Below, one piece after another: positions 917 through 10,355 of a stretch of 24,870 nucleotides of DNA. Each line of letters starts with the position of its first letter. The stretch's first letter is position 1. Under the pieces are notes generated by a model. It had not been told where the DNA came from. It ran no database searches and saw nothing but the letters and a program-made list of their open reading frames with translations. A program made the position numbers and the translations under genes. This stretch comes from a virus, in IMG/VR virus record IMGVR_UViG_3300025141_000701, positions 1-24,870 of that record; one strand, 5' to 3'.

Positions 917-1137
917 TATTCTTCCTCTTCTTTTTCTCGTTCAACCTGAAAAAATACAATTGTTCGCATTCCTTTGTATCTCATAGGAATCTTTTTTCTT
1001 ACTTTTCTCGCATGTTTTTGAGGTATGTTGTGTATTTCTATGACTTTTCCGCCATCGTCAGTGCCGGATCTATACTTATATTTTTTACTCAACGGATATT
1101 CTTTTTTAAGCTCTTTAATGATATCTTTTATTTTCAT
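916..1137 (-). CDS. Hypothetical small protein, 73 aa, charged
   Basis: The start ATG (1137-1135) overlaps the TGA of uvsX as ATGA, a typical translational coupling, and the stop touches the next small gene. The product begins MKIKDIIKELKKEYPLSKKY, has a basic middle (KHARKVRKKIPMRYKGMR), a short beta-like segment TIVFFQVE and an acidic tail KEEEE. There is no Cys, membrane segment or recognisable domain. Placement directly after uvsX and before a basic 45-aa gene suggests the early or middle replication-recombination operon, but no function can be given. Confidence 0.65.
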   Translation of the reverse strand: MKIKDIIKELKKEYPLSKKYKYRSGTDDGGKVIEIHNIPQKHARKVRKKIPMRYKGMRTIVFFQVEREKEEEE

Positions 1138-2264
1138 GGATATTGCTCAGGCTCTGTGTTATCAACATCATAAAAATCTGCTGCTTTGCCTTCACGTTTA
1201 TCAAATTTAAGAACAATCTCTTGTTCCATTAATTCTACAACTCTATTATAGAATTTTTCATCTTTAAGTTTTTCGGGCCAATTTTTAGCTTGAAATTTTT
1301 CAGATGTTTTATCATCATAGTGTAAAGTAAACCAAGCGCCGGCGTTTGTTAAATATTCTGATGACTTAATTGCTTCAAGCCAGCTTTCCTTGTCCATAAT
1401 GTGAATATCTTCGCCGCCCCAAAGAATCTTAAAAGAGCATTCTCTTCCTTGAGTTCCAAAGCGGCTTTTTTCGATCTTTGCCCGCACTTCTGTTCCGATG
1501 CGGAAGCCCTTATCATCATAGATGAAACTTGCCTTTCCTTTCCTCGCTGTGAGCCACACACGCAGCGAATAGGCGTAAGCTAGGGCCTTACCCCCCGGAG
1601 TGAAATAAGGCGTTGTCATGGCCTCTGAGGGCCTTCTAGTGATGTTCGTTTTAAGTTGGTTTAGGATCAGTAAAGTCGCCTTTTTGTTGGCGATCGGCTG
1701 AACCAGCTTTGCCATGCCTTTTGAAAGGATGCGAGGCTTTACAGCCATCGTTGATAGTGGGTTGAAGTCGCTCTCAATGTCACTAACTGAAGGTGTCATA
1801 GCCATGCTATCCCATATAAATAGCATTTTATTATCGTTATTGGCTAATAGGTTCTCAATTGTTTCCAAGACAAACTCAACCGATTGCGCCTGAATATATA
1901 ACAGATTTTCTAAGTCACAACCCCCGCTTTCCAAAAAGCGTGGGTCAATAGCACTTTCAGAATCAAAGTAAATTACATCAATGCCCATTTTTTGAGCATT
2001 TGCAGCAACCTGTGCTGCCATATAAGATTTACCCGTTGCTTCTAGGCCAGCGATCTCACTGATTTTGCTAACGGGGATACCACCCCACTTGCCACGACGA
2101 ACGATACCGTCTAGCCACTTCGAACCAGTCGGAATAAATTCGTTAACTTCAGTTGGGTTCTCGTCTTTTAAAGAAAACGCAACATTTGCGCCGGCCGACT
2201 TGTTAATCAGCTTTTTCATATCGGCGATGCTTAATCGCCCACTCGTTTTATTTATTTTTGCCAT
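1134..2264 (-). CDS. uvsX: UvsX/RecA-family recombinase (376 aa)
   Basis: This is an ATP-dependent strand-exchange protein of the RecA/UvsX family, which coats single-stranded DNA for recombination-dependent replication and repair. Walker A is GLEATGKS (residues 73-80). The following YFDSESAIDP (99-108) matches the RecA stretch carrying the catalytic Glu (E103 here). Walker B is MLFIWDS with D152. NQLKTNITRRP and the FTPGGKAL segment correspond to the DNA-binding L2 region and its flank. Length is close to T4 UvsX (about 390 aa). The start at ATG 2264 is supported by AGAGG five to six bases upstream. It lies 48 bases after the gp32-like gene, with a strong hairpin between them that should lower its expression relative to gp32, and it overlaps the next gene by four bases. 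The family call is secure. Confidence 0.95.
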   Translation of the reverse strand: MAKINKTSGRLSIADMKKLINKSAGANVAFSLKDENPTEVNEFIPTGSKWLDGIVRRGKWGGIPVSKISEIAGLEATGKSYMAAQVAANAQKMGIDVIYFDSESAIDPRFLESGGCDLENLLYIQAQSVEFVLETIENLLANNDNKMLFIWDSMAMTPSVSDIESDFNPLSTMAVKPRILSKGMAKLVQPIANKKATLLILNQLKTNITRRPSEAMTTPYFTPGGKALAYAYSLRVWLTARKGKASFIYDDKGFRIGTEVRAKIEKSRFGTQGRECSFKILWGGEDIHIMDKESWLEAIKSSEYLTNAGAWFTLHYDDKTSEKFQAKNWPEKLKDEKFYNRVVELMEQEIVLKFDKREGKAADFYDVDNTEPEQYP

Positions 2265-2312: not shown

Positions 2313-3038
2313 CTAACTTGCTAGCAATTCGGTGAATGCCTTATCTACTGTATTTTCTGTATTGTACTTTTCAACGTCGTCGTTTCCCTCGCCGTCAGCA
2401 AGGTATTCGTCAAGCATTTCCTTGACTTCCTGCGACGTCTTGCGAGGAAAGATTGCAGTAAAATCAATCTCAGTGTTAATAAACTCCTTCGCAAGCTCAC
2501 GATCTTCAGTAAGAGCCGAAGAGCGCCGGCGCGGCTCAAGATCCGTGCTTGGGAACATTGCTCCCGACTTCTTACCATATCGAAGGGTAAGGTCGGTGCC
2601 AGTCTCCGGATCAGTAATATCGCCATAATCCGGATTCAAGACGAGGCCCAGCAGCTTCTCATAAACTGTCTTGCTATAGCCCCAGAGTCGAACGCCCTGG
2701 TCCTCTTCGCCGCGAACGATCACGGGCGAGAAGAAGCGCTGCTTTGCCATCAGCTTCTTCGCCAATTCACGGGACTCGTCAGAGCCATCCTCCCAAAGCT
2801 TACGAACAAAGGTGTCCAAAGGACAATCCTCGCCAAAATTACGCTTTGGGCTCAAGAAACCGGGCTTGTCGCCAAGGTTGTAATGGAACCAAAACTCCCT
2901 AAAGGGATCGCCATCTGCATCTGGAACAATTCGGATAGTCTGTTCGCCATCCTGCGGCTTCCAGAACCACCGCTTACCATTGCCATTGCCTTGTAGAGCA
3001 ACTTGCTTTTGTTTCATTTTCTTCAAATCTAATGCCAT
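2313..3038 (-). CDS. 32: gp32-like single-stranded DNA-binding protein (241 aa)
   Basis: A T4 gp32-type SSB protects single-stranded DNA at the fork and works with UvsX and the polymerase. The product starts MALDLKKMKQKQ (LAST-like basic N-terminus). It then has RWFWKPQDGEQTIRIVPD, matching the conserved FW.P..GEQ.IRI.P entry to the core, then FREFWFHYNLG and RFFSPVIVRG, and an acidic C-terminus (DGEGNDDVEKYNTE) as expected for partner binding. It has one Cys (EDCPLD), so the zinc site of T4 gp32 (His plus three Cys) is absent. The frame is open to 3104, but ATG 3038 is chosen because AAGGAG sits ten bases upstream; the longer version would start inside the promoter-leader. It is followed by a terminator hairpin and then uvsX. 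Confidence 0.9.
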   Translation of the reverse strand: MALDLKKMKQKQVALQGNGNGKRWFWKPQDGEQTIRIVPDADGDPFREFWFHYNLGDKPGFLSPKRNFGEDCPLDTFVRKLWEDGSDESRELAKKLMAKQRFFSPVIVRGEEDQGVRLWGYSKTVYEKLLGLVLNPDYGDITDPETGTDLTLRYGKKSGAMFPSTDLEPRRRSSALTEDRELAKEFINTEIDFTAIFPRKTSQEVKEMLDEYLADGEGNDDVEKYNTENTVDKAFTELLAS

Positions 3039-3062: not shown

Positions 3063-3083
3063 GGCTGGGTCATTTTCCCAGCC
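3063..3083 (-). promoter_or_regulatory. 5'-leader hairpin of the gp32 mRNA (possible autoregulatory site)
   Basis: On the minus strand GGCTGGG and CCCAGCC form a perfect seven-base stem around the loop AAAATGA. Transcripts from the promoter at 3120-3093 should begin about three bases before it, so the hairpin would sit at the very 5' end. The remaining leader (TATAATTTAAGGAGAAAAAA...) is A/T-rich and unstructured through the SD. T4 gene 32 mRNA has the same arrangement, a 5'-terminal structure (pseudoknot) that nucleates gp32 binding over an unstructured SD region. Similar function here is inference. Confidence 0.6.
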
Positions 3084-3092
3084 CGCACTATA

Positions 3093-3120
3093 AGTATACC
3101 TCATTCTGAGCGATTGTCAA
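3093..3120 (-). promoter_or_regulatory. Sigma70-type promoter for gp32
   Basis: TTGACA (3120-3115, perfect -35), a 16-nt spacer and TATACT (3098-3093, five of six -10 matches) lie in the last codons of the tubulin-like gene. The predicted start near 3086 gives a leader of about 48 nt with a 5'-terminal hairpin. This would give gp32 and uvsX their own early transcript, in addition to read-through from the polymerase promoter. Confidence 0.8.
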
Positions 3121-3955
3121 CCATTTTTTCACCCTGAATGAAGTTTGTGTGAGCTTCGATATATGCAAAATCTTCTTCATATGTCGTCGCTGTTATATCA
3201 TATGATACATTAGTAAACGCAGATTGTCCAGCTTTTTTTATCCGTTTGCTTATTTTGTTTAAAAGATTTTTTTCTTCATTTAGTGTTTGTTCGCCAAAAG
3301 CAAAATAAAAGTGTTTTTCTCGTATGTTTTCAATATTATAAAAATATTTTTCATTGTCTTCTGTTGTACTGTATATGCCAAGTGTAGAAATTCTATTAAT
3401 TTCATGTGGTGGCGATATATTGCTCATAATAAAATCGCTATTTTTAAGATAATTTAACATGTGAAAAGAATTAGCAATTAATGAATTAATTTTGTCACGA
3501 TATTCCACAATTGATAAATTACCTAAAATTTCAGCAACATTAAAATCATCAATTAATATAATTCGCTTAAACAGCCCAGATCTAGCATATTGCTGTAAAA
3601 CGCCAAACACAACTCTTTCATGAGCCTTTTCTTTTTCGCCAAGTAAATCAAAATTTGGCCGAACATATACAACATTTATTTTTAAATGTTTAAATTGTTC
3701 TAAAGTAGCTAAAATAGAGCTACTTATAGTTTCGACGCCGCCGCAAAAAAAGAATATTTCTTCTTTAACCTTTTCAACCAACGATGGAAATTGCGGCGTT
3801 TTATCTTCGGCCTCTTCTACGACCTTTGAGGCCGGTAAAGCATAGCAATTTTTGCCCGTTAAGCCAACGTCAATATAAAAAACGTCATATTGCGGATGTA
3901 CAGACAATTTTTTTGCGACGGCGCGGCCGACTTGGCCAAAACCAATTATATTCAT
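3101..3955 (-). CDS. Divergent tubulin/FtsZ-superfamily-like protein (284 aa), putative
   Basis: No standard name is recognised. Residues 2-16 (NIIGFGQVGRAVAKK) form a glycine-rich beta-alpha start followed by VFYIDV (25-30), like strands 1-2 of FtsZ. IFFFCGGVETISSS (67-80) sits where FtsZ has its VFI.AG.GGGTGTG tubulin signature. NVVYVRPNFDLLGEKEK (94-110) matches the following VVTKPF.FEG.KR segment. RIILIDDFNVAEIL (131-144) matches TLI.IPND.LL. REKHFYFAFG (212-221), then a helix, then a YDIT..YEEDFAYIEAHT strand pair, match the C-terminal activation domain. Signature glycines and the catalytic NxDxxD loop are not kept (NISPPHE at 179-185), so ordinary GTPase activity is doubtful. The ATG overlaps the polymerase stop by four bases (ATGA). 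The fold call is inference from motif order; an unrelated Rossmann-like protein is the alternative. Confidence 0.5.
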   Translation of the reverse strand: MNIIGFGQVGRAVAKKLSVHPQYDVFYIDVGLTGKNCYALPASKVVEEAEDKTPQFPSLVEKVKEEIFFFCGGVETISSSILATLEQFKHLKINVVYVRPNFDLLGEKEKAHERVVFGVLQQYARSGLFKRIILIDDFNVAEILGNLSIVEYRDKINSLIANSFHMLNYLKNSDFIMSNISPPHEINRISTLGIYSTTEDNEKYFYNIENIREKHFYFAFGEQTLNEEKNLLNKISKRIKKAGQSAFTNVSYDITATTYEEDFAYIEAHTNFIQGEKMVDNRSE

Positions 3956-5130
3956 TCTGTTTTATTCATATTGCCAAAGTTTTTACCAATCGACGTTGAA
4001 ACTTTATAAGTACCTAAATCTGTATTTGAAAATGTTTCTACAATTTGATTAAAAAGGCTGCGTTCTTCTTTTGCCAAATCAATTACCAACGAATCATGGA
4101 CTACAAAAGCTATATATGACCTAGAGTCTTTAAGTAAATCATGAACTTTAATCACTTGTCGTAAAACCATATCTGCTGTTGTACTCTGAATCAAATAATT
4201 CAAAGCATGAAATTCGTCCGCTTCGATCTTCCTGCCAAATGGCGTTGTAACTATTTTACCATCCCAGTATTTTTCTTTAATGCTTGTTTTGTCATAGGCT
4301 TTATTCGCCAAATAATCTTTAGAGCCCGGATTATACAACCAAGCGAAGATACGCTCTTTGGCTTCTTCGCGCGATTGCATGCCGGCAAACACATTTTTGG
4401 CGTTCCATTCGTGTATATCTTCTTTTGGCTGTTCTTTTCCGCACAAGGCTAAAAGCGTCCTTAGCTCGGCTGCGTTGAAATCCAACTCTACATAGAGATC
4501 GTTGTTTGGCTCCAATATAGGACGATATTCCTTTTTAAGCGTTAAAACGGGAAAAGACTTTGGCTCTGTTGTCAGCCTGCCTGTTTTTGTCCCAAAAATA
4601 TTATATTTAATCCGCTTTTCTGCTTTTTGAAGTCGTTTCAAAAAATTTCTAGTTGCAAGCTGATGGCTTAAGTGGCTTAATTTGTTTATTTTTAAATTTA
4701 AAGGTCTATTTTTTATATCTTCAACAACTTTTGTAAGTTGCAATAAAAAATCATAATTTTCAGGTTTTTCGTGGTTATCCAAAACATGTTTGGTTATTTG
4801 ATTTTTGATTTCATAAAAATTTAACAAAAAATGTTCTGGCACCAAATCATAAAAACAATGCTCATTTAAATTAATTTTTGCTTGTTTAAAAGAATTTAAA
4901 AATGCGCGCATCTTTTGGCTGGTGGCTTTCCACTCGCTTTTAAGATTTTTTGGACAAACTGCATCAAGCGGGTTGCCGGCACAATATAAGCTTGCATATT
5001 CTATTTCATGTGGCAAATTTTCACAATAGCCCCAAGTCCCAGAAAGCCCTTGAGGTAAATCTTTATGAATTTTTTCTTGAAAATAGATTTTTTTACACTT
5101 AGATTTGTTGTCCAACACTTGAAAAAACAT
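3952..5130 (-). CDS. Short family A DNA polymerase, polymerase domain only (392 aa)
   Basis: This is a template-directed DNA polymerase of the Pol I family. TGRLTTEP (183-190) matches the thumb-palm motif TGRLSS.P. Motif A is DFNAAELR with catalytic D217. EDIHEWNAKNVF (237-248) matches DIH..TA..VF. The O-helix REEAKERIFAWLY gives R254, K258, F262 and Y266 at exactly the Pol I spacing (R754/K758/F762/Y766). NYLIQSTTADMV (311-322) matches NAP.QGTAADI. Motif C is VHDS with D346 but Ser where Pol I has Glu. Residues 1-150 hold no recognisable 3'-5' exonuclease (no DxE or YxxxD set), so proofreading must come from another gene or be missing. RM378 has such a split polymerase, as I recall. The start at ATG 5130 follows the previous stop directly (TAAATG) with AGGA seven bases upstream. 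A perfect sigma70 promoter precedes it. Confidence 0.88.
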   Translation of the reverse strand: MFFQVLDNKSKCKKIYFQEKIHKDLPQGLSGTWGYCENLPHEIEYASLYCAGNPLDAVCPKNLKSEWKATSQKMRAFLNSFKQAKINLNEHCFYDLVPEHFLLNFYEIKNQITKHVLDNHEKPENYDFLLQLTKVVEDIKNRPLNLKINKLSHLSHQLATRNFLKRLQKAEKRIKYNIFGTKTGRLTTEPKSFPVLTLKKEYRPILEPNNDLYVELDFNAAELRTLLALCGKEQPKEDIHEWNAKNVFAGMQSREEAKERIFAWLYNPGSKDYLANKAYDKTSIKEKYWDGKIVTTPFGRKIEADEFHALNYLIQSTTADMVLRQVIKVHDLLKDSRSYIAFVVHDSLVIDLAKEERSLFNQIVETFSNTDLGTYKVSTSIGKNFGNMNKTE

Positions 5131-6636
5131 TTAAGTTCCTATTAGGCCTGGAATCATTATAATATTTTCTTCTCTAACTGTCAACCTTTTATCAAAATCT
5201 GCCGCTCCTAAACCAAGCGGGCCTAAAGCATATTCGACATACTGAAGGGCCGCGGAGGTTAATTTTTTGTCTTCATTTTTCAGCGCCAACAAATATATAT
5301 GATGTGCTTTGGTGGCTATTTTTTTTAATTGTTTAAAGCCAAGCGGCCGGCCTTTTTCTATATTTCTAATTTCAGCATACCACCTCATCCACTTTTTTTC
5401 CAAAGTTTTTTCGTTCAAGGGGCTTCTTTTGATGTAAACAATAGATGAGCCAGCAGTTTTTGAATAAGTTGGGTTTTTTGCAAGAAATTTAAGATACATT
5501 TCCTTGATGGTTGTAGCAAAACTAGAATCTTTAGCTCTGAAATTATTATAATTTGCATAAGGAACGAAAAGTTGAGAATAAACTTCTCTAATATTCACTT
5601 TATTAAATTGGGCTGCGCAGTCCTTCGGAGTTGTGCATGGGCCAGCAAGGCCCGGGGCTTTCGTTGTCATATATGGCAACTGCCATTTGCTAATATATGG
5701 CCACATTTTATCAGATGTTATATCTGCAATTGCTCGCCATGGAATATTTGGATCAATTTTAAATCCATGCATTGTCAAAACATACTTAAAAAAATCAAAA
5801 TTCGGATCTTCATAAAATTGAATTTTTTCTCGGTCTGATGTAAGATCGGCATCAAATAAATCATAAACAAGCCCGCTGCTATATGGCGTAGTAAGTTTAC
5901 TTTCCATAAAACCAGAAAATGTTATAACATTTCCCGTTCCTTCTAAAAATCGTTTAAGCAATTCATAAAAATCTTCAATGTCGGCCAAATCTCCGCTGTT
6001 TTCATAAGCGCTCAACTTTTCTACTAAAAAACTTTCATAAATTTCATTTAAATTTTGCACAAACAAGTCGTTTCTTCTATCGTATCCTTTAACTATTTTA
6101 ATTTCTTTTATTAAACTATTTTTATTTATAAGACGAGTTTGAAAAAACGCACTCGCATCCATCCAGGCGGCCACAATAAAAAGTGGAATTGTTTCTCGCC
6201 CAGAGTCGCCCAGTAGCGCCTTAATACTTGCCAACATCGGAGAATCTTTTTTCCACCACTCGGGAATAGGCTCACATCCAATTTCCTCAGTTTCGTCGCC
6301 GAGACCAAGAAATTCCTTTAAAAGCTCATCGGTCAAGGGGTTATTTTCGACGCTAGCCACAAGGCCATGTAAACTTATTTTACCATAAAGTGGGCTGTGA
6401 TACCAAATATCAATTGTATTTTTCTGAAAGTCATTAAACACTTTTTTAAAATTTATTCGGCCCTGAAACATTTTTTTTGTAGAAGAGGAGTTAGTTGCAC
6501 TAGAAATTTCCCCAAATTTTTCTAAAATTTGTTGTTTCACAAATTCTTGCTTCGAAATTATGGCTTCTTTAGTTTCCTCTAGCTCTTCTTCAAGCTCCGC
6601 TAAATTAAATTCAATTTCTAAATTTGTTGATGCCAT
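5131..6636 (-). CDS. Unrecognised structural/baseplate-region protein (501 aa)
   Basis: I do not recognise a family. The N-terminus (about 5-45) is strongly acidic and helical (LAELEEELEETKEAI), probably a coiled coil. The rest is mixed alpha/beta with many aromatic residues (IDIWYHSPLYGK, EPIPEWWKK, DPNIPWRAIADITSDKMWPY) and the C-terminus ends IIMIPGLIGT. There is no signal peptide or transmembrane helix. Its ATG follows the stop of the 1122-aa gene directly (TAAATG) and no promoter lies between, so it should be made with it. Context suggests a baseplate or hub component of similar abundance. Its last codons contain the promoter for the downstream polymerase. Confidence 0.75.
   Translation of the reverse strand: MASTNLEIEFNLAELEEELEETKEAIISKQEFVKQQILEKFGEISSATNSSSTKKMFQGRINFKKVFNDFQKNTIDIWYHSPLYGKISLHGLVASVENNPLTDELLKEFLGLGDETEEIGCEPIPEWWKKDSPMLASIKALLGDSGRETIPLFIVAAWMDASAFFQTRLINKNSLIKEIKIVKGYDRRNDLFVQNLNEIYESFLVEKLSAYENSGDLADIEDFYELLKRFLEGTGNVITFSGFMESKLTTPYSSGLVYDLFDADLTSDREKIQFYEDPNFDFFKYVLTMHGFKIDPNIPWRAIADITSDKMWPYISKWQLPYMTTKAPGLAGPCTTPKDCAAQFNKVNIREVYSQLFVPYANYNNFRAKDSSFATTIKEMYLKFLAKNPTYSKTAGSSIVYIKRSPLNEKTLEKKWMRWYAEIRNIEKGRPLGFKQLKKIATKAHHIYLLALKNEDKKLTSAALQYVEYALGPLGLGAADFDKRLTVREENIIMIPGLIGT
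5156..5184 (-). promoter_or_regulatory. Perfect-consensus sigma70 promoter ahead of the DNA polymerase
   Basis: The minus strand reads TTGACA (5184-5179), 17 bases, then TATAAT (5161-5156), identical to the bacterial vegetative consensus in both boxes and spacing. The predicted start is near 5149, giving a leader of about 19 nt that contains the AGGA SD for the polymerase ATG at 5130. It overlaps the 3' end of the structural gene upstream and marks the switch from late to replication genes. Confidence 0.9.
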
Positions 6637-9600
6637 TTACTTTGCCTTCTTTTTCTTCAGGGCCGCGGCCTTCTTAGCCTTCTTCTCTGCCTTGGCCGCG
6701 GCTTTTGCCTTTGCCTTTGCCTGCCGGGCTAGCTGTTTTTGGTGCTTTTTAAGCTTTTTTTGAAAAGTCTTCTTGGTGTCGGCTTCGCGCTTTGCGGCGG
6801 CGGCGTCGGATGCCTTCTTCTCAGCCGGCGACAACTTATCGTAATATTCCTGTTCCTCTTTCATGGCCGCGGCGGTCTTCTTGTCGACCTTTGCCGCGAA
6901 TTCGGCGGCTGCCTCGTCGGCCTCTACTTTCTTAGTCGCATCTTTCATCGCCCATTTCTTCGGATTTTGCAGCCTATCAAACTGCTCATCAGCGGTGCCC
7001 CTATTATTTGCGGATTCGGCCTTATATGCGTTGACATCGCCGACTGGACTGCAGACGGCAAGCGCGGGATGAAAATCTTGTCCGCTTGGGCATTTACACT
7101 GCTTATTCTTTTTATCCCAGGTGCCGCCTAGGCCGGAACAATCGTATTCCCGTAGGGCGCCCAGTTCCTTCTTAAATTCTCTAGCCGAACTAAAATATAA
7201 TTCCGCCATTCTCTGATCGCCGTATATTAAATTCTGAGTTATATATTTTATAATATCGTGTTTTGCAGAAATTCCAAATTTAGCTTTTTTGCCCTTTAAA
7301 ATTTCTTCTTGTTTTGCCGATTTAGATTTATCAAAATTATGACCCATATTCACGCCGTGTACAGAAGTTGTATATTCTCCCATGGAAATAACATCAGTCA
7401 AAGAATCAATTCTATAATATCCGCGGATCCCGGGATCATCGACATCACTAATCCCCAAAGGATTATGTGAAATAACAAAATAAGCGCCCTTATCATAAAG
7501 ATTGTTCCCAATCATTGTTGGGCTAGCTTGATATGGTTGCTTTAAAAATTTTGCAGCACTATCAACCAAAGTATCAAGCCACAAAGCGGTGCGTAGGCCA
7601 GAATTGTCCAAATAACTAAAATCTATTGTTTTAAGAATTCCGCGGTCTTCGCCGACGACCAAATGATACATTCCATCTCGATGATCTTTCCACCTGTTAA
7701 AATTCCGTTCACCCATGCTTTGTAACATGGGTGTAACAGCCTCGGTGTCGCCACCAGTTGGAGTGGCAAATTGCCTATAGTATAATAACGAAGTAGCTTG
7801 GTCACTTTGCTCTTTTTTTACTTCAACGGCGAGGTCGGCCATGGCTTTTCCGGCTGCCACAGCCGCCGTCGCAGACGTCGGATCTGCTGCCAAATCTCCA
7901 AAAAGGCCCTCCGCCTTGCCTTTCTTAGACTTCGCCCACTTTTCAGTAACTTGATACGGCTCTCTTACAATAGACCCAAAATTTGTTTTAGAGCCCATCA
8001 GAGCGCGAGGTACCAAATCATATATTACACTATTCATAAAATCGCCGAAAGCCCATTGGCCGCGGTCAACAGACTCAACGTGCTTATAAAACCATTCTTT
8101 AAAAACGCTCACTTCAATTAAAATATCACCAAGATTAACCCAAAGCTCCTCATCCAAAGAGCGAATAATTATATTGCCAAGAGCAACTGATGGCTGGTAC
8201 CGGCGCTTCCAGCCGGCGACCTCATAAACTGCTGAAATCAAAGCTCTTAAGGGAAAAAATAAAAAATTACCAAAACTGCGATGCCGCTGCTCTAGGCCAC
8301 CGGCTTCGGCGGCATGGCCGCAATTTGTCAAAGCACACAATAGCGCATGCACTCTAGTTTTTAACTCTTCTTTAAAGTCTATTTTACTATTTTCAGGATC
8401 GTTCCCCGTTAAAAGGTTTAAAATGTATCTTCCGGCGGTGTTCTTTCTTTTTAGCACACTTTCAAACTCTTTTACAACTTCGCTCAACTCAAACTCTGAA
8501 TATTTTATAGCACTGACGTTGCTCTTATCAAAAAACTTCTGCCTATCCTTGCGACTAAGACCCGCCACCGGCATCTTGAGTTTTTTAAGACTAGATTCGA
8601 TACGCTTCTTTGAGCGAAGCGCGGTGACTTCAGTTTGTAAGGCAAACGATGGTTTGACGGTGCTCAGCCCTTCGGGGAGACTACGAAAACTAATTTTAAA
8701 AAGTTGACGTTCGTGTGCAATTATTTCTAATAAAACATTTTGGAGCGCCAGAGCAGTTGCTTTTTTTACCGCATTGATTTTTTTATTTAAATCTATTCCT
8801 TTTTGCCGCTTTTCCCGCTTTAATTCTTCTATTGTTGCATCTTCTAGCTCTCTCATCTCAGCAGATAATGATTCTCTTCTAACTTTTTGTACACCAGCAC
8901 AATCACTAAAAAAGTTATCAACAAATTCTGATTCTAGTTTTAATGCTTTTAATTCTTCCATAGCGGCGGCAAGAGTTGCTTTGCCGAGCGCCGCTGAACT
9001 AACTTTTGTAAAATCTGCTATTTCAAGAATATCATTTTTTTCTTTGTCGGCGTGGGCATCAAATTCAGGAGAGCCTTGATAGCTTACAGATAAGTTAATT
9101 TCGCCATTTTCGCCAAATTTAAAGTCATGTTTTGTCCATCTTATTTTAAAAACTTTTCTTTCTTCTTTTTGAAACACCTGTCTTATATCGAAGGGTATCA
9201 ATTCATCTGGCGTATCCTTTTTAAAGCGCCAGCCATATTCAACATACAAATTTTCTTCCAAATCTTCAATTCTTTTAAGCCCGTCACACTTAGTTTTTTG
9301 ACCTTGTGGAATTATTAATTTAAGATAGTCTTTTCTGTTCAAAGCGCGCACGAAATCAGTAGGATGCCCCTCAGTGAAAGCTTTCATGCTGCTAAAATAA
9401 AAGTCAGCATTAAAGAAAAAAGAATGACTCTTGCCCCAAGCAGGGAATTTTCTTTCAACTTTCAATGATTTAATACCAGCAGAGCCAATTCTGGCGAATT
9501 TATTGTTTAAAATAAACTCTTCGTCTACAAATTCTTTAAAAACAATGGGCTTTTCCTGCCATGGATTTTTATTTTTAGTCCCTTCGTTGGTTGGTCTTCT

Positions 9601-10005
9601 TGTTTTCGTAAAAAATCTTATATAGGGGATTAGCGCGGCTTGTTGGGGCGGCGTCATATTCATTAAAAACTCTATGTACCTTAATCGCGGATTTGTAACC
9701 AGCCCAAATTGTCCAGCTTGGACAACTGCGCCGGCGACATAATTCGCAGTGGCAGACAACCAAGAGTCGGGCGTAACCAAAGGAAGGCCGCCTTCAAATT
9801 TATTTTTATGTTTTGGGTGAAAAAAAATAAGCTTTCCGTGCGCATGTTTAAATGATTCGCTTACTTTGTGGTCCTTCCGGTCTCCATAAATCAATTCTCT
9901 AAAACCGTCATTTTCAGGCTCATATATTTGTCCCAATAACATATCAGTTAGCCAACTCTGCGGTGACAAATTCTGTGGTAAAAAGAAGTTAACTTTCTTA
10001 GCCAT
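6637..10005 (-). CDS. Large baseplate/hub-type virion protein (1122 aa)
   Basis: This is the largest gene in the window, in the baseplate section after a LysM protein. About residues 165-210 contain VDEEFILNNKFARIGSAGIK, then an aromatic strand set (SFFFNADFYFSS), a pattern I associate with large baseplate proteins of marine myoviruses; the exact family is not certain. Residues about 355-450 are helical and charged (likely coiled coil). A four-Cys cluster, C956-x13-C970-x-C972-x12-C985, looks like a small disulfide or EGF-like knot, unusual in a cytoplasmically assembled virion protein. About 1050-1122 is a very basic Lys/Ala tail (AKAKAAAKAEKKAKKAAA), partly coded by TTTGCC repeats (6704-6721, plus strand). 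The start at 10005 is three bases from the previous stop. T4 hub functions (gp27/gp5) or a wedge protein are possible; I cannot choose. Confidence 0.7.
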   Translation of the reverse strand: MAKKVNFFLPQNLSPQSWLTDMLLGQIYEPENDGFRELIYGDRKDHKVSESFKHAHGKLIFFHPKHKNKFEGGLPLVTPDSWLSATANYVAGAVVQAGQFGLVTNPRLRYIEFLMNMTPPQQAALIPYIRFFTKTRRPTNEGTKNKNPWQEKPIVFKEFVDEEFILNNKFARIGSAGIKSLKVERKFPAWGKSHSFFFNADFYFSSMKAFTEGHPTDFVRALNRKDYLKLIIPQGQKTKCDGLKRIEDLEENLYVEYGWRFKKDTPDELIPFDIRQVFQKEERKVFKIRWTKHDFKFGENGEINLSVSYQGSPEFDAHADKEKNDILEIADFTKVSSAALGKATLAAAMEELKALKLESEFVDNFFSDCAGVQKVRRESLSAEMRELEDATIEELKREKRQKGIDLNKKINAVKKATALALQNVLLEIIAHERQLFKISFRSLPEGLSTVKPSFALQTEVTALRSKKRIESSLKKLKMPVAGLSRKDRQKFFDKSNVSAIKYSEFELSEVVKEFESVLKRKNTAGRYILNLLTGNDPENSKIDFKEELKTRVHALLCALTNCGHAAEAGGLEQRHRSFGNFLFFPLRALISAVYEVAGWKRRYQPSVALGNIIIRSLDEELWVNLGDILIEVSVFKEWFYKHVESVDRGQWAFGDFMNSVIYDLVPRALMGSKTNFGSIVREPYQVTEKWAKSKKGKAEGLFGDLAADPTSATAAVAAGKAMADLAVEVKKEQSDQATSLLYYRQFATPTGGDTEAVTPMLQSMGERNFNRWKDHRDGMYHLVVGEDRGILKTIDFSYLDNSGLRTALWLDTLVDSAAKFLKQPYQASPTMIGNNLYDKGAYFVISHNPLGISDVDDPGIRGYYRIDSLTDVISMGEYTTSVHGVNMGHNFDKSKSAKQEEILKGKKAKFGISAKHDIIKYITQNLIYGDQRMAELYFSSAREFKKELGALREYDCSGLGGTWDKKNKQCKCPSGQDFHPALAVCSPVGDVNAYKAESANNRGTADEQFDRLQNPKKWAMKDATKKVEADEAAAEFAAKVDKKTAAAMKEEQEYYDKLSPAEKKASDAAAAKREADTKKTFQKKLKKHQKQLARQAKAKAKAAAKAEKKAKKAAALKKKKAK

Positions 10006-10007
10006 TT

Positions 10008-10355
10008 TTAAAGTCCATACATTTTTAAAACATCATTTAATGGCAAAGGAATTTTTACTAAATCGCCAACTTTAACATGTTGTTCTGTTGGCTTTTTGTT
10101 GAACCAAGCAATAACCCACCAATATTTTGAATCGCCGTAATGTTGGTGCGCCAACTTGTAATAGTGATCCCCAAATTTCCAAATATGGTTAGAAAAAGTC
10201 AATAATTTTATTTCCTCAAACGTTGGATAGTCCATTTCTTGTGTTTCATAATGACGAATTAAATCTCTATCTCCATATCTAGATATAAATTCTTTTTTAT
10301 AATCCGGATCATCATTAACAAGAATATTTAAATTTTTATACCTTGATGTTGCCAT
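10008..10355 (-). CDS. LysM-domain baseplate protein, gp53-like (115 aa)
   Basis: The product has a short N-terminal part (SRYKNLNILVNDDPDYKKEF, then ISRYGDRDLIRHYETQEMDY) and a C-terminal LysM-like domain from about residue 55 to 112. That domain runs IWKFGDHYYKLAHQHYGD, SKYWWVIAWFN and VKVGDLVKIPLP, which is the order 'starts, kLA...yGd..yWwvI...N, v..G..l.iP'. LysM-type domains are found in T4 gp53 (baseplate wedge) and in many small myovirus baseplate proteins, where they bind hub or tube components rather than peptidoglycan. It sits 14 bases after the 294-aa gene and two bases before the 1122-aa gene. The family call is good; equating it with gp53 is inference. Confidence 0.75.
   Translation of the reverse strand: MATSRYKNLNILVNDDPDYKKEFISRYGDRDLIRHYETQEMDYPTFEEIKLLTFSNHIWKFGDHYYKLAHQHYGDSKYWWVIAWFNKKPTEQHVKVGDLVKIPLPLNDVLKMYGL

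What the first reader, a model, noticed from the sequence alone, without database searches (positions are those of the whole stretch)
3101..3955. A tubulin/FtsZ-like protein with degraded GTPase signature in a T4-type replication module
The 284-aa product follows the order of FtsZ/tubulin elements through both domains: glycine-rich N-terminal strand-loop, a 'FFFCGGVETISSS' loop at the GGGTGTG position, 'VVYVRPNFDLLGEKEK', 'RIILIDDFNVAEIL', a long helix, and a C-terminal activation-type domain. The signature glycines and the catalytic acidic residues of the T7 loop appear lost (NISPPHE). Phage tubulins (PhuZ, TubZ) are known from other phages, but one placed in overlap between a DNA polymerase and gp32 in a T4-type phage would be unusual. 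If real, it may be a non-polymerising or partner-dependent member tied to replication.
Basis: partly seen in the sequence, partly recalled or inferred. Interest (0 to 1): 0.78.

Follow-up and report, generated by a model that had tools for sequence, protein, structure and literature searches.

The report
Tubulin-fold protein in a phage replisome operon
A large group of uncultivated ocean phages related to T4 carries, fixed between its DNA polymerase and its single-strand DNA-binding protein, a shrunken relative of tubulin and FtsZ that no database names; its GTP-binding motifs have decayed several times, which suggests that a cytoskeletal protein has become a part of the DNA copying machinery.

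Summary
The gene is real. It lies on the minus strand (3955..3101, 284 aa) and overlaps the family A polymerase stop by 4 nt. It does not overlap gp32, which most likely starts at 3038 behind AAGGAG. Pfam, PHROGs and PDB sequence searches do not identify it. It is not an isolated oddity: all 77 IMG/VR loci (contigs up to 184 kb) with a relative of the polymerase and enough downstream sequence encode it (64 directly adjacent), followed by gp32, UvsX, exonuclease and DnaB helicase. Seven long contigs show no T4-type clamp and no family B polymerase. The T1 and T4 loops are recognisable in most members, but key residues were lost several times, including in the window's clade; FtsZ helices H8/H9 and the NxDxxD T7 motif are missing. 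Selection is purifying, and distances track the polymerase best (r 0.82). Best reading: a new, compact family of the tubulin superfamily acting as a replisome accessory scaffold. The fold is near certain; the role is inferred.

The parts
3101..3955 (-). TubL: 284-aa tubulin/FtsZ-fold protein (provisional name)
   Evidence: ORF; AF2 pLDDT 87.3 pTM 0.87; FtsZ/CetZ/TubZ/tubulin structural matches over residues 1-278; purifying selection
3920..3943 (-). T1-like glycine loop, residues 5-12 (GFGQVGRA; family GxGxAGCx)
   Evidence: family alignment A7: G5 59/60, G7 57/60, G10 59/60
3716..3739 (-). T4-like phosphate loop, residues 73-80 (GVETISSS; family GxGx(I/V)SGA, FtsZ GGGTGTGA), degraded here
   Evidence: G73 54/60, G75 49/60, S78 48/60, G79 49/60; window has E75 and S79
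3443..3511 (-). predicted central helix H7, residues 149-171, with conserved N157 (3485-3487) at the guanine-contact position by alignment to FtsZ
   Evidence: DSSP of the model; N157 57/60; hhalign aligns SIxxYxxKIN with FtsZ SLLDAFGAAND
3383..3442 (-). T7-region linker, residues 172-191; no NxDxxD, helices H8/H9 not predicted; acid at 185 in 46/60
3952..5130 (-). family A DNA polymerase, 392 aa, 4-nt ATGA overlap with TubL
   Evidence: PF00476 E 8e-18, phrog_17
2313..3038 (-). gp32-type single-strand DNA-binding protein (probable true start 3038)
   Evidence: PF08804 E 2e-13; start by homology and Shine-Dalgarno
1134..2264 (-). UvsX/RecA-type recombinase
   Evidence: PF00154 E 7.5e-32; phrog_97
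3093..3120 (-). sigma70-type promoter-like site (TTGACA-16-TATACT) in the 3' end of TubL, probably for gp32
   Evidence: 11 of 12 matches; aligned in relatives, also where the reading frame there differs
3063..3084 (-). conserved stem-loop between TubL and gp32
   Evidence: folds and paired changes in relatives

Best explanation
TubL is a compact, divergent family of the tubulin/FtsZ superfamily that has become a fixed part of the replication module of a large group of marine far-T4-type phages. Its gene overlaps that of the family A polymerase, so the two are probably translated together, and it most likely works as a replisome accessory: a tubulin-fold scaffold that binds the polymerase, and perhaps gp32, and helps load or hold it on DNA in phages where no sliding clamp was found. 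In most members a remnant nucleotide pocket may regulate it; in the window's clade the pocket is degraded, so there it should act as a pseudo-enzyme, not as a GTP-driven dynamic filament. Shown: the gene, its conservation, its position, the decay of motifs. Predicted with high confidence: the fold (about 0.97). Inferred: coupling to replication (about 0.75) and the accessory/scaffold role as opposed to a filament (about 0.5).
For: Fold: AF2 pLDDT 87.3, pTM 0.87; Foldseek top 50 all FtsZ/TubZ, best E 2.7e-11; VIA-align CetZ 3zid Z 24.1, rmsd 2.9 over 253 residues, FtsZ about 22, TubZ 22, tubulin about 21, spanning 1-278. Profile alignment with FtsZ runs in register through T1, T4, T6 and H7. 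Role: 77/77 polymerase loci with enough downstream sequence have TubL, 64 within 40 nt, then gp32 and UvsX; exonuclease, DnaB helicase and RNR follow; one copy per contig in seven contigs of 101-184 kb; no PF02916 clamp and no PolB in them, with T4 as positive control. Distance correlation TubL-PolA r 0.82, TubL-gp32 0.72, PolA-gp32 0.67. Pocket residues lost repeatedly (27 of 60 lack at least one of nine; at least 4 changes forced by supported branches) while dN/dS stays low.
Against: Gene position does not prove contact with the polymerase. Characterised members of the superfamily generally polymerise, and 33 of 60 members keep all nine pocket residues checked, which would fit a nucleotide-driven filament. 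A divergent clamp below Pfam detection cannot be excluded, and the contigs are not known to be complete. Only one of the five AF2 models was highly confident (the others 65-73). By sequence alone the C-terminal half shows no FtsZ similarity. The distance correlation also reflects shared ancestry.
Confidence: 0.55

Rival explanations
1. TubL is a cytoskeletal protein: it assembles into filaments, by a non-canonical or partner-driven mechanism, that position or segregate replicating phage DNA, like PhuZ or TubZ, and sits in the replication operon only for timing.
For: Tubulin-superfamily fold over both domains; phosphate-loop glycines and the H7 Asn kept in most members; known phage tubulins centre phage DNA (PMC4244570).
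Against: No NxDxxD T7 motif, predicted loss of H8 and H9, and repeated loss of pocket residues without loss of the gene. No sequence kinship to PhuZ beyond a 32-residue T1 match. Tightest evolutionary tie is to the polymerase.
Confidence: 0.25
2. TubL is a decoy that targets the host: a degraded FtsZ mimic that caps or poisons host FtsZ filaments and blocks division during infection.
For: FtsZ-like fold with decayed catalytic parts; phages often block FtsZ (general knowledge).
Against: Fixed position between polymerase and gp32 and a one-to-one association with PolA; no FtsZ similarity by sequence in the C-terminal half.
Confidence: 0.1
3. It is an ordinary Rossmann NAD(P)-binding protein and the tubulin resemblance is superficial.
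For: Best weak sequence hits are TrkA_N and KtrA-type NAD-binding domains (TrkA_N E 5e-4 in one member); the shallow first model also matched dehydrogenases.
Against: These hits cover only the N-terminal part. The deep-alignment model matches FtsZ/CetZ/TubZ/tubulin over 252-274 residues with Z above 20, including the C-terminal domain that Rossmann enzymes lack.
Confidence: 0.03

Closest known systems
CetZ / FtsZ (archaeal and bacterial tubulin superfamily)
   Same: Best structural matches over both domains (Z 21-24); T1, T4, T6, H7 order conserved.
   Different: About 272 core residues; no H8/H9 predicted, no T7 NxDxxD, T4 loop GxGxxSGA and often degraded; below Pfam Tubulin cut-off; phage replication operon.
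PhuZ (phiKZ-like jumbo phages)
   Same: Phage-encoded tubulin-superfamily fold; T1 region weakly alignable.
   Different: No full-length sequence similarity; PhuZ centres the phage nucleus as dynamic filaments and is absent from a third of its phage family (PMC10299810), whereas TubL was found in 77/77 loci and sits beside PolA.
TubZ (plasmid and phage partition systems)
   Same: Structural match Z about 22.
   Different: TubZ works with TubR and a centromere (general knowledge); TubL's neighbours are replisome genes.
FtsZl1/FtsZl2 families (Makarova and Koonin 2010, PMC2875224)
   Same: Divergent tubulin-superfamily families; FtsZl1 also lacks recognisable T6-H7 elements.
   Different: Those keep T1/T4 motifs and are cellular; FtsZl1 lies next to membrane-remodelling genes; phages are not mentioned there.

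Membership tests
Tubulin/FtsZ superfamily | Two-domain fold: nucleotide-binding domain, long central helix H7, C-terminal activation domain | tested here: met
   AF2 pLDDT 87 and matches spanning 1-278, Z 20.6-24; predicted, not solved
Tubulin/FtsZ superfamily | T4 signature (G/A)GGTG(S/T)G | tested here: not met
   Window GVETISSS; family consensus GxGx(I/V)SGA
Tubulin/FtsZ superfamily | T7 catalytic motif NxDxxD followed by H8 | tested here: not met
   SNISPPHEINR; no helix between H7 and the next strand; one acid (185) is D/E in 46/60
Tubulin/FtsZ superfamily | Pfam PF00091 above gathering score | tested here: not met
   13/60 members hit weakly, best E 0.0073, none over the cut-off in the records scanned
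Tubulin/FtsZ superfamily | Nucleotide-dependent polymerisation and GTPase | not testable with these tools
   needs purified protein
PhuZ family | Full-length sequence homology to phiKZ PhuZ | tested here: not met
   BLASTP no significant match; profile match 32 residues only
TubZ partition system | Linked tubR/tubC and partition role | not tested
   not searched specifically; neighbours seen are polymerase, gp32, UvsX
Far-T4 phages (host genome) | gp23 capsid clade near RM378 | tested here: inconclusive
   Window capsid matches Mel-JY01 and Flavobacterium immuto phages (36-37%, 95-97% covered) and RM378 (43% over 59%) among the best; no tree was built; RM378 lacks TubL

The most novel reading that the evidence does not exclude
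A tubulin-superfamily protein has been recruited as a stoichiometric replisome subunit (polymerase holder or loader in place of the clamp system) in a major group of uncultivated phages: a non-cytoskeletal, in places pseudo-enzymatic, tubulin that works in DNA synthesis.
Probability: 0.3. Interest if true: 0.92.

Novelty: new variant of a known kind. Interest (0 to 1): 0.74.

Why it matters
Known phage tubulins (PhuZ, TubZ) are dispensable or lineage-restricted filaments that move DNA. Here a tubulin-fold protein is a universal, single-copy neighbour of the replicative polymerase in an abundant, uncultivated phage group predicted to infect mainly Flavobacteriales (PMC13037479, PMC7198788). If it acts in the replisome, it would be a new use of one of the oldest cytoskeletal folds and would help explain how these phages replicate without a detected clamp. 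The natural series of members with intact and decayed nucleotide pockets makes the role of nucleotide directly testable.

Tried and rejected
Pfam, PHROGs and PDB sequence searches with single sequences and profiles gave only weak Rossmann-type or chance hits. The first AF2 model with six close relatives was poor in the C-terminal half (mean pLDDT 53) and its matches were mixed between FtsZ and dehydrogenases; I did not rely on it. Annotated phage records gave no relative with six TubL queries beyond chance hits (the Vibrio GR11A hit is a short stretch of a 585-aa protein). Two scans of GTDB genomes found none. RM378, the Flavobacterium immuto phage and Mel-JY01 have no TubL by profile search. 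Papers on far-T4 phages and virioplankton polA do not mention tubulin or FtsZ. PhuZ was not among the 50 VIA-align rows shown; that is not evidence against kinship.

Full report
What is there. The finding's coordinates hold a 284-aa ORF on the minus strand, 3955 down to 3101. Its ATG overlaps the stop of a family A DNA polymerase gene (3952-5130) by four bases; the polymerase is identified by PF00476 (E 8e-18) and the downstream genes by PF08804/gp32 and RecA/UvsX. The apparent overlap with gp32 is not real: relatives start gp32 at MALDxKK, and in the window that ATG is at 3038, behind AAGGAGAAAAAACATT, leaving a 62-nt gap.

Is it a gene, and how common. Relatives were found in IMG/VR at 47-71% identity, then at 33-38%. 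A profile of the neighbouring polymerase found at least 493 places that encode a relative, of which the best 80 were fetched. In all 77 loci with at least 1 kb beyond the polymerase, or with the gene itself in view, a member of the family is encoded downstream on the same strand; in 64 it starts within 40 nt of the polymerase stop, mostly overlapping it. The three remaining loci end too soon. In 13 loci another ORF is inserted between the two genes. gp32 and UvsX follow, then (in L012 and L037) a 5'-3' exonuclease and a DnaB-type helicase, with dCMP deaminase or ribonucleotide reductase nearby. Seven contigs of 101-184 kb have exactly one copy each. dN/dS is 0.16-0.26 for the window against its nearest relatives and 0.09-0.25 elsewhere, somewhat above the polymerase's 0.03-0.18.

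Fold. No sequence library names the protein. With six close relatives AF2 gave a poor C-terminal half. With 30 relatives down to 33% identity it gave pLDDT 87.3 and pTM 0.87, with only the last ten residues below 50. Foldseek against the PDB lists FtsZ and TubZ only in the first 50 rows (E 2.7e-11 to 1.1e-9). VIA-align gives CetZ Z 24.1 (rmsd 2.9 over 253), FtsZ about 22, TubZ 22 and eukaryotic tubulin about 21, over model residues 1-278. Among predicted viral structures the best hits are an FtsZ of an uncultured Caudovirales phage, a phage 'cell division protein' and tubulin-like proteins, all at 10-12% identity, so no near relative is in that library. Independent of structure, hhalign of the 60-member family against nine FtsZ aligns residues 1-165 in register (T1, T4, the T6 Asn, and SIxxYxxKIN with FtsZ SLLDAFGAAND) with score 31.6; 100 column shuffles reached at most 26.4; the C-terminal half shows nothing by sequence. 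This is weak support alone, but agrees with the model.

Anatomy against FtsZ. By the order of predicted elements, the strands and helices S1-H1-S2-H2-S4-H4-S5-H5-S6-H6-H7 and S7-S8-H10-S9-S10 can be assigned (my mapping; no coordinates were available to superpose). Helices H8 and H9 have no counterpart, and the S2-S4 region that carries the T3 loop is shorter. T1 is GxGxAGCxI (G5, G7, G10 in 57-59 of 60). The T4 loop is GxGx(I/V)SGA instead of GGGTGTGA. N157 in H7 (57/60) aligns with the FtsZ Asn-Asp pair near the guanine site. N137 (53/60) matches the T6 Asn. The T7 stretch lacks NxDxxD; position 185 is acidic in 46/60. 33 of 60 members keep all nine pocket residues checked; 27 have lost at least one, and supported branches of the tree force at least four changes. 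The window's clade (window, L009, L010, L011; 100/98 support) has E75 and lacks N137; the window also has S79. Two long-branch members, L112 and L126, have lost nearly everything, yet the gene stays in place.

Context of the phage. The capsid is most like those of Microcystis phage Mel-JY01, the Flavobacterium immuto phages and RM378, i.e. the far-T4 neighbourhood (Roux et al. 2015, PMC4360716); I built no tree. Far-T4 phages have been linked to Bacteroidetes/Flavobacteriales hosts (PMC7198788, PMC13037479). The seven long contigs have no hit to the T4-type clamp family PF02916 and none to family B polymerase, while T4 itself hits both, and all have a DnaB-type helicase. RM378, the only isolated far-T4 phage named in those papers, has a family B polymerase hit and no TubL. 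The papers I could read do not mention a tubulin or FtsZ in far-T4 phages or beside virioplankton polA.

What it probably does. A gene that is always between polymerase and SSB, nearly always touches or overlaps the polymerase gene, tracks the polymerase in evolution (Mantel r 0.82, more than polymerase with gp32, 0.67) and tolerates loss of its nucleotide pocket is best explained as a protein partner in the replisome, with the tubulin fold as scaffold. In T7, thioredoxin serves a family A polymerase in that way (general knowledge); here no clamp was found, so a processivity or loading role is a natural guess. These last steps are inference. The main rival is a filament that positions replicating DNA, as PhuZ does; intact-pocket members keep that open. 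A host-FtsZ decoy is less likely. A plain Rossmann enzyme is excluded by the model.

Novelty. The fold is known; the family is not named in any library searched, is the most compact superfamily member I know of (about 272 core residues), and its setting is new to me. I file it as a new variant of a known kind: it fits the superfamily by fold, but fails the T4, T7 and Pfam criteria, so it should not be called an FtsZ, PhuZ or TubZ.

Noticed in passing
window 3093-3120 (-), and relatives aligned: A near-consensus sigma70-type promoter (TTGACA-16-TATACT) lies at the 3' end of the TubL gene, so that the VDNRSE tail encodes its -35 box; the promoter DNA is kept in relatives whose reading frame there is shifted or ended earlier. 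It probably drives gp32 on its own.
   Followed up: partly
window 3063-3084 (-), relatives: A stem-loop (GGGCTGGG-loop-CCCAGCC) with paired changes in relatives (GGTTGGG/CCCAACC; GGCAGG/CCTGTC in L033) stands just before the gp32 Shine-Dalgarno; it could be an operator for gp32 autoregulation, as in T4, but of different make.
   Followed up: partly
window 3952-5130 (-): The polymerase ORF has only 392 aa; no separate proofreading exonuclease was seen next to it, and RM378 by contrast carries a family B polymerase hit.
   Followed up: partly
L070 1466-3388; L112 5696-6778; L083 1197-1505; L090 5678-6253: In 13 loci an extra ORF is inserted exactly between PolA and TubL: MopE/VWA-like 641 aa, DUF5661/phosphatase-like 361 aa, or unknown proteins of 103-202 aa.
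   Followed up: partly
L112 7210-8025 and L126 5682-6530: Two very divergent TubL members have lost almost all nucleotide-pocket residues while keeping the gene position.
   Followed up: no
window 5131-6636 and 6637-10005 (-): Two large proteins (501 and 1122 aa) directly upstream of the polymerase are conserved in synteny in the relatives but match no Pfam family; the next gene (10008-10355) resembles a baseplate wedge subunit, so structural genes abut the replication module.
   Followed up: partly
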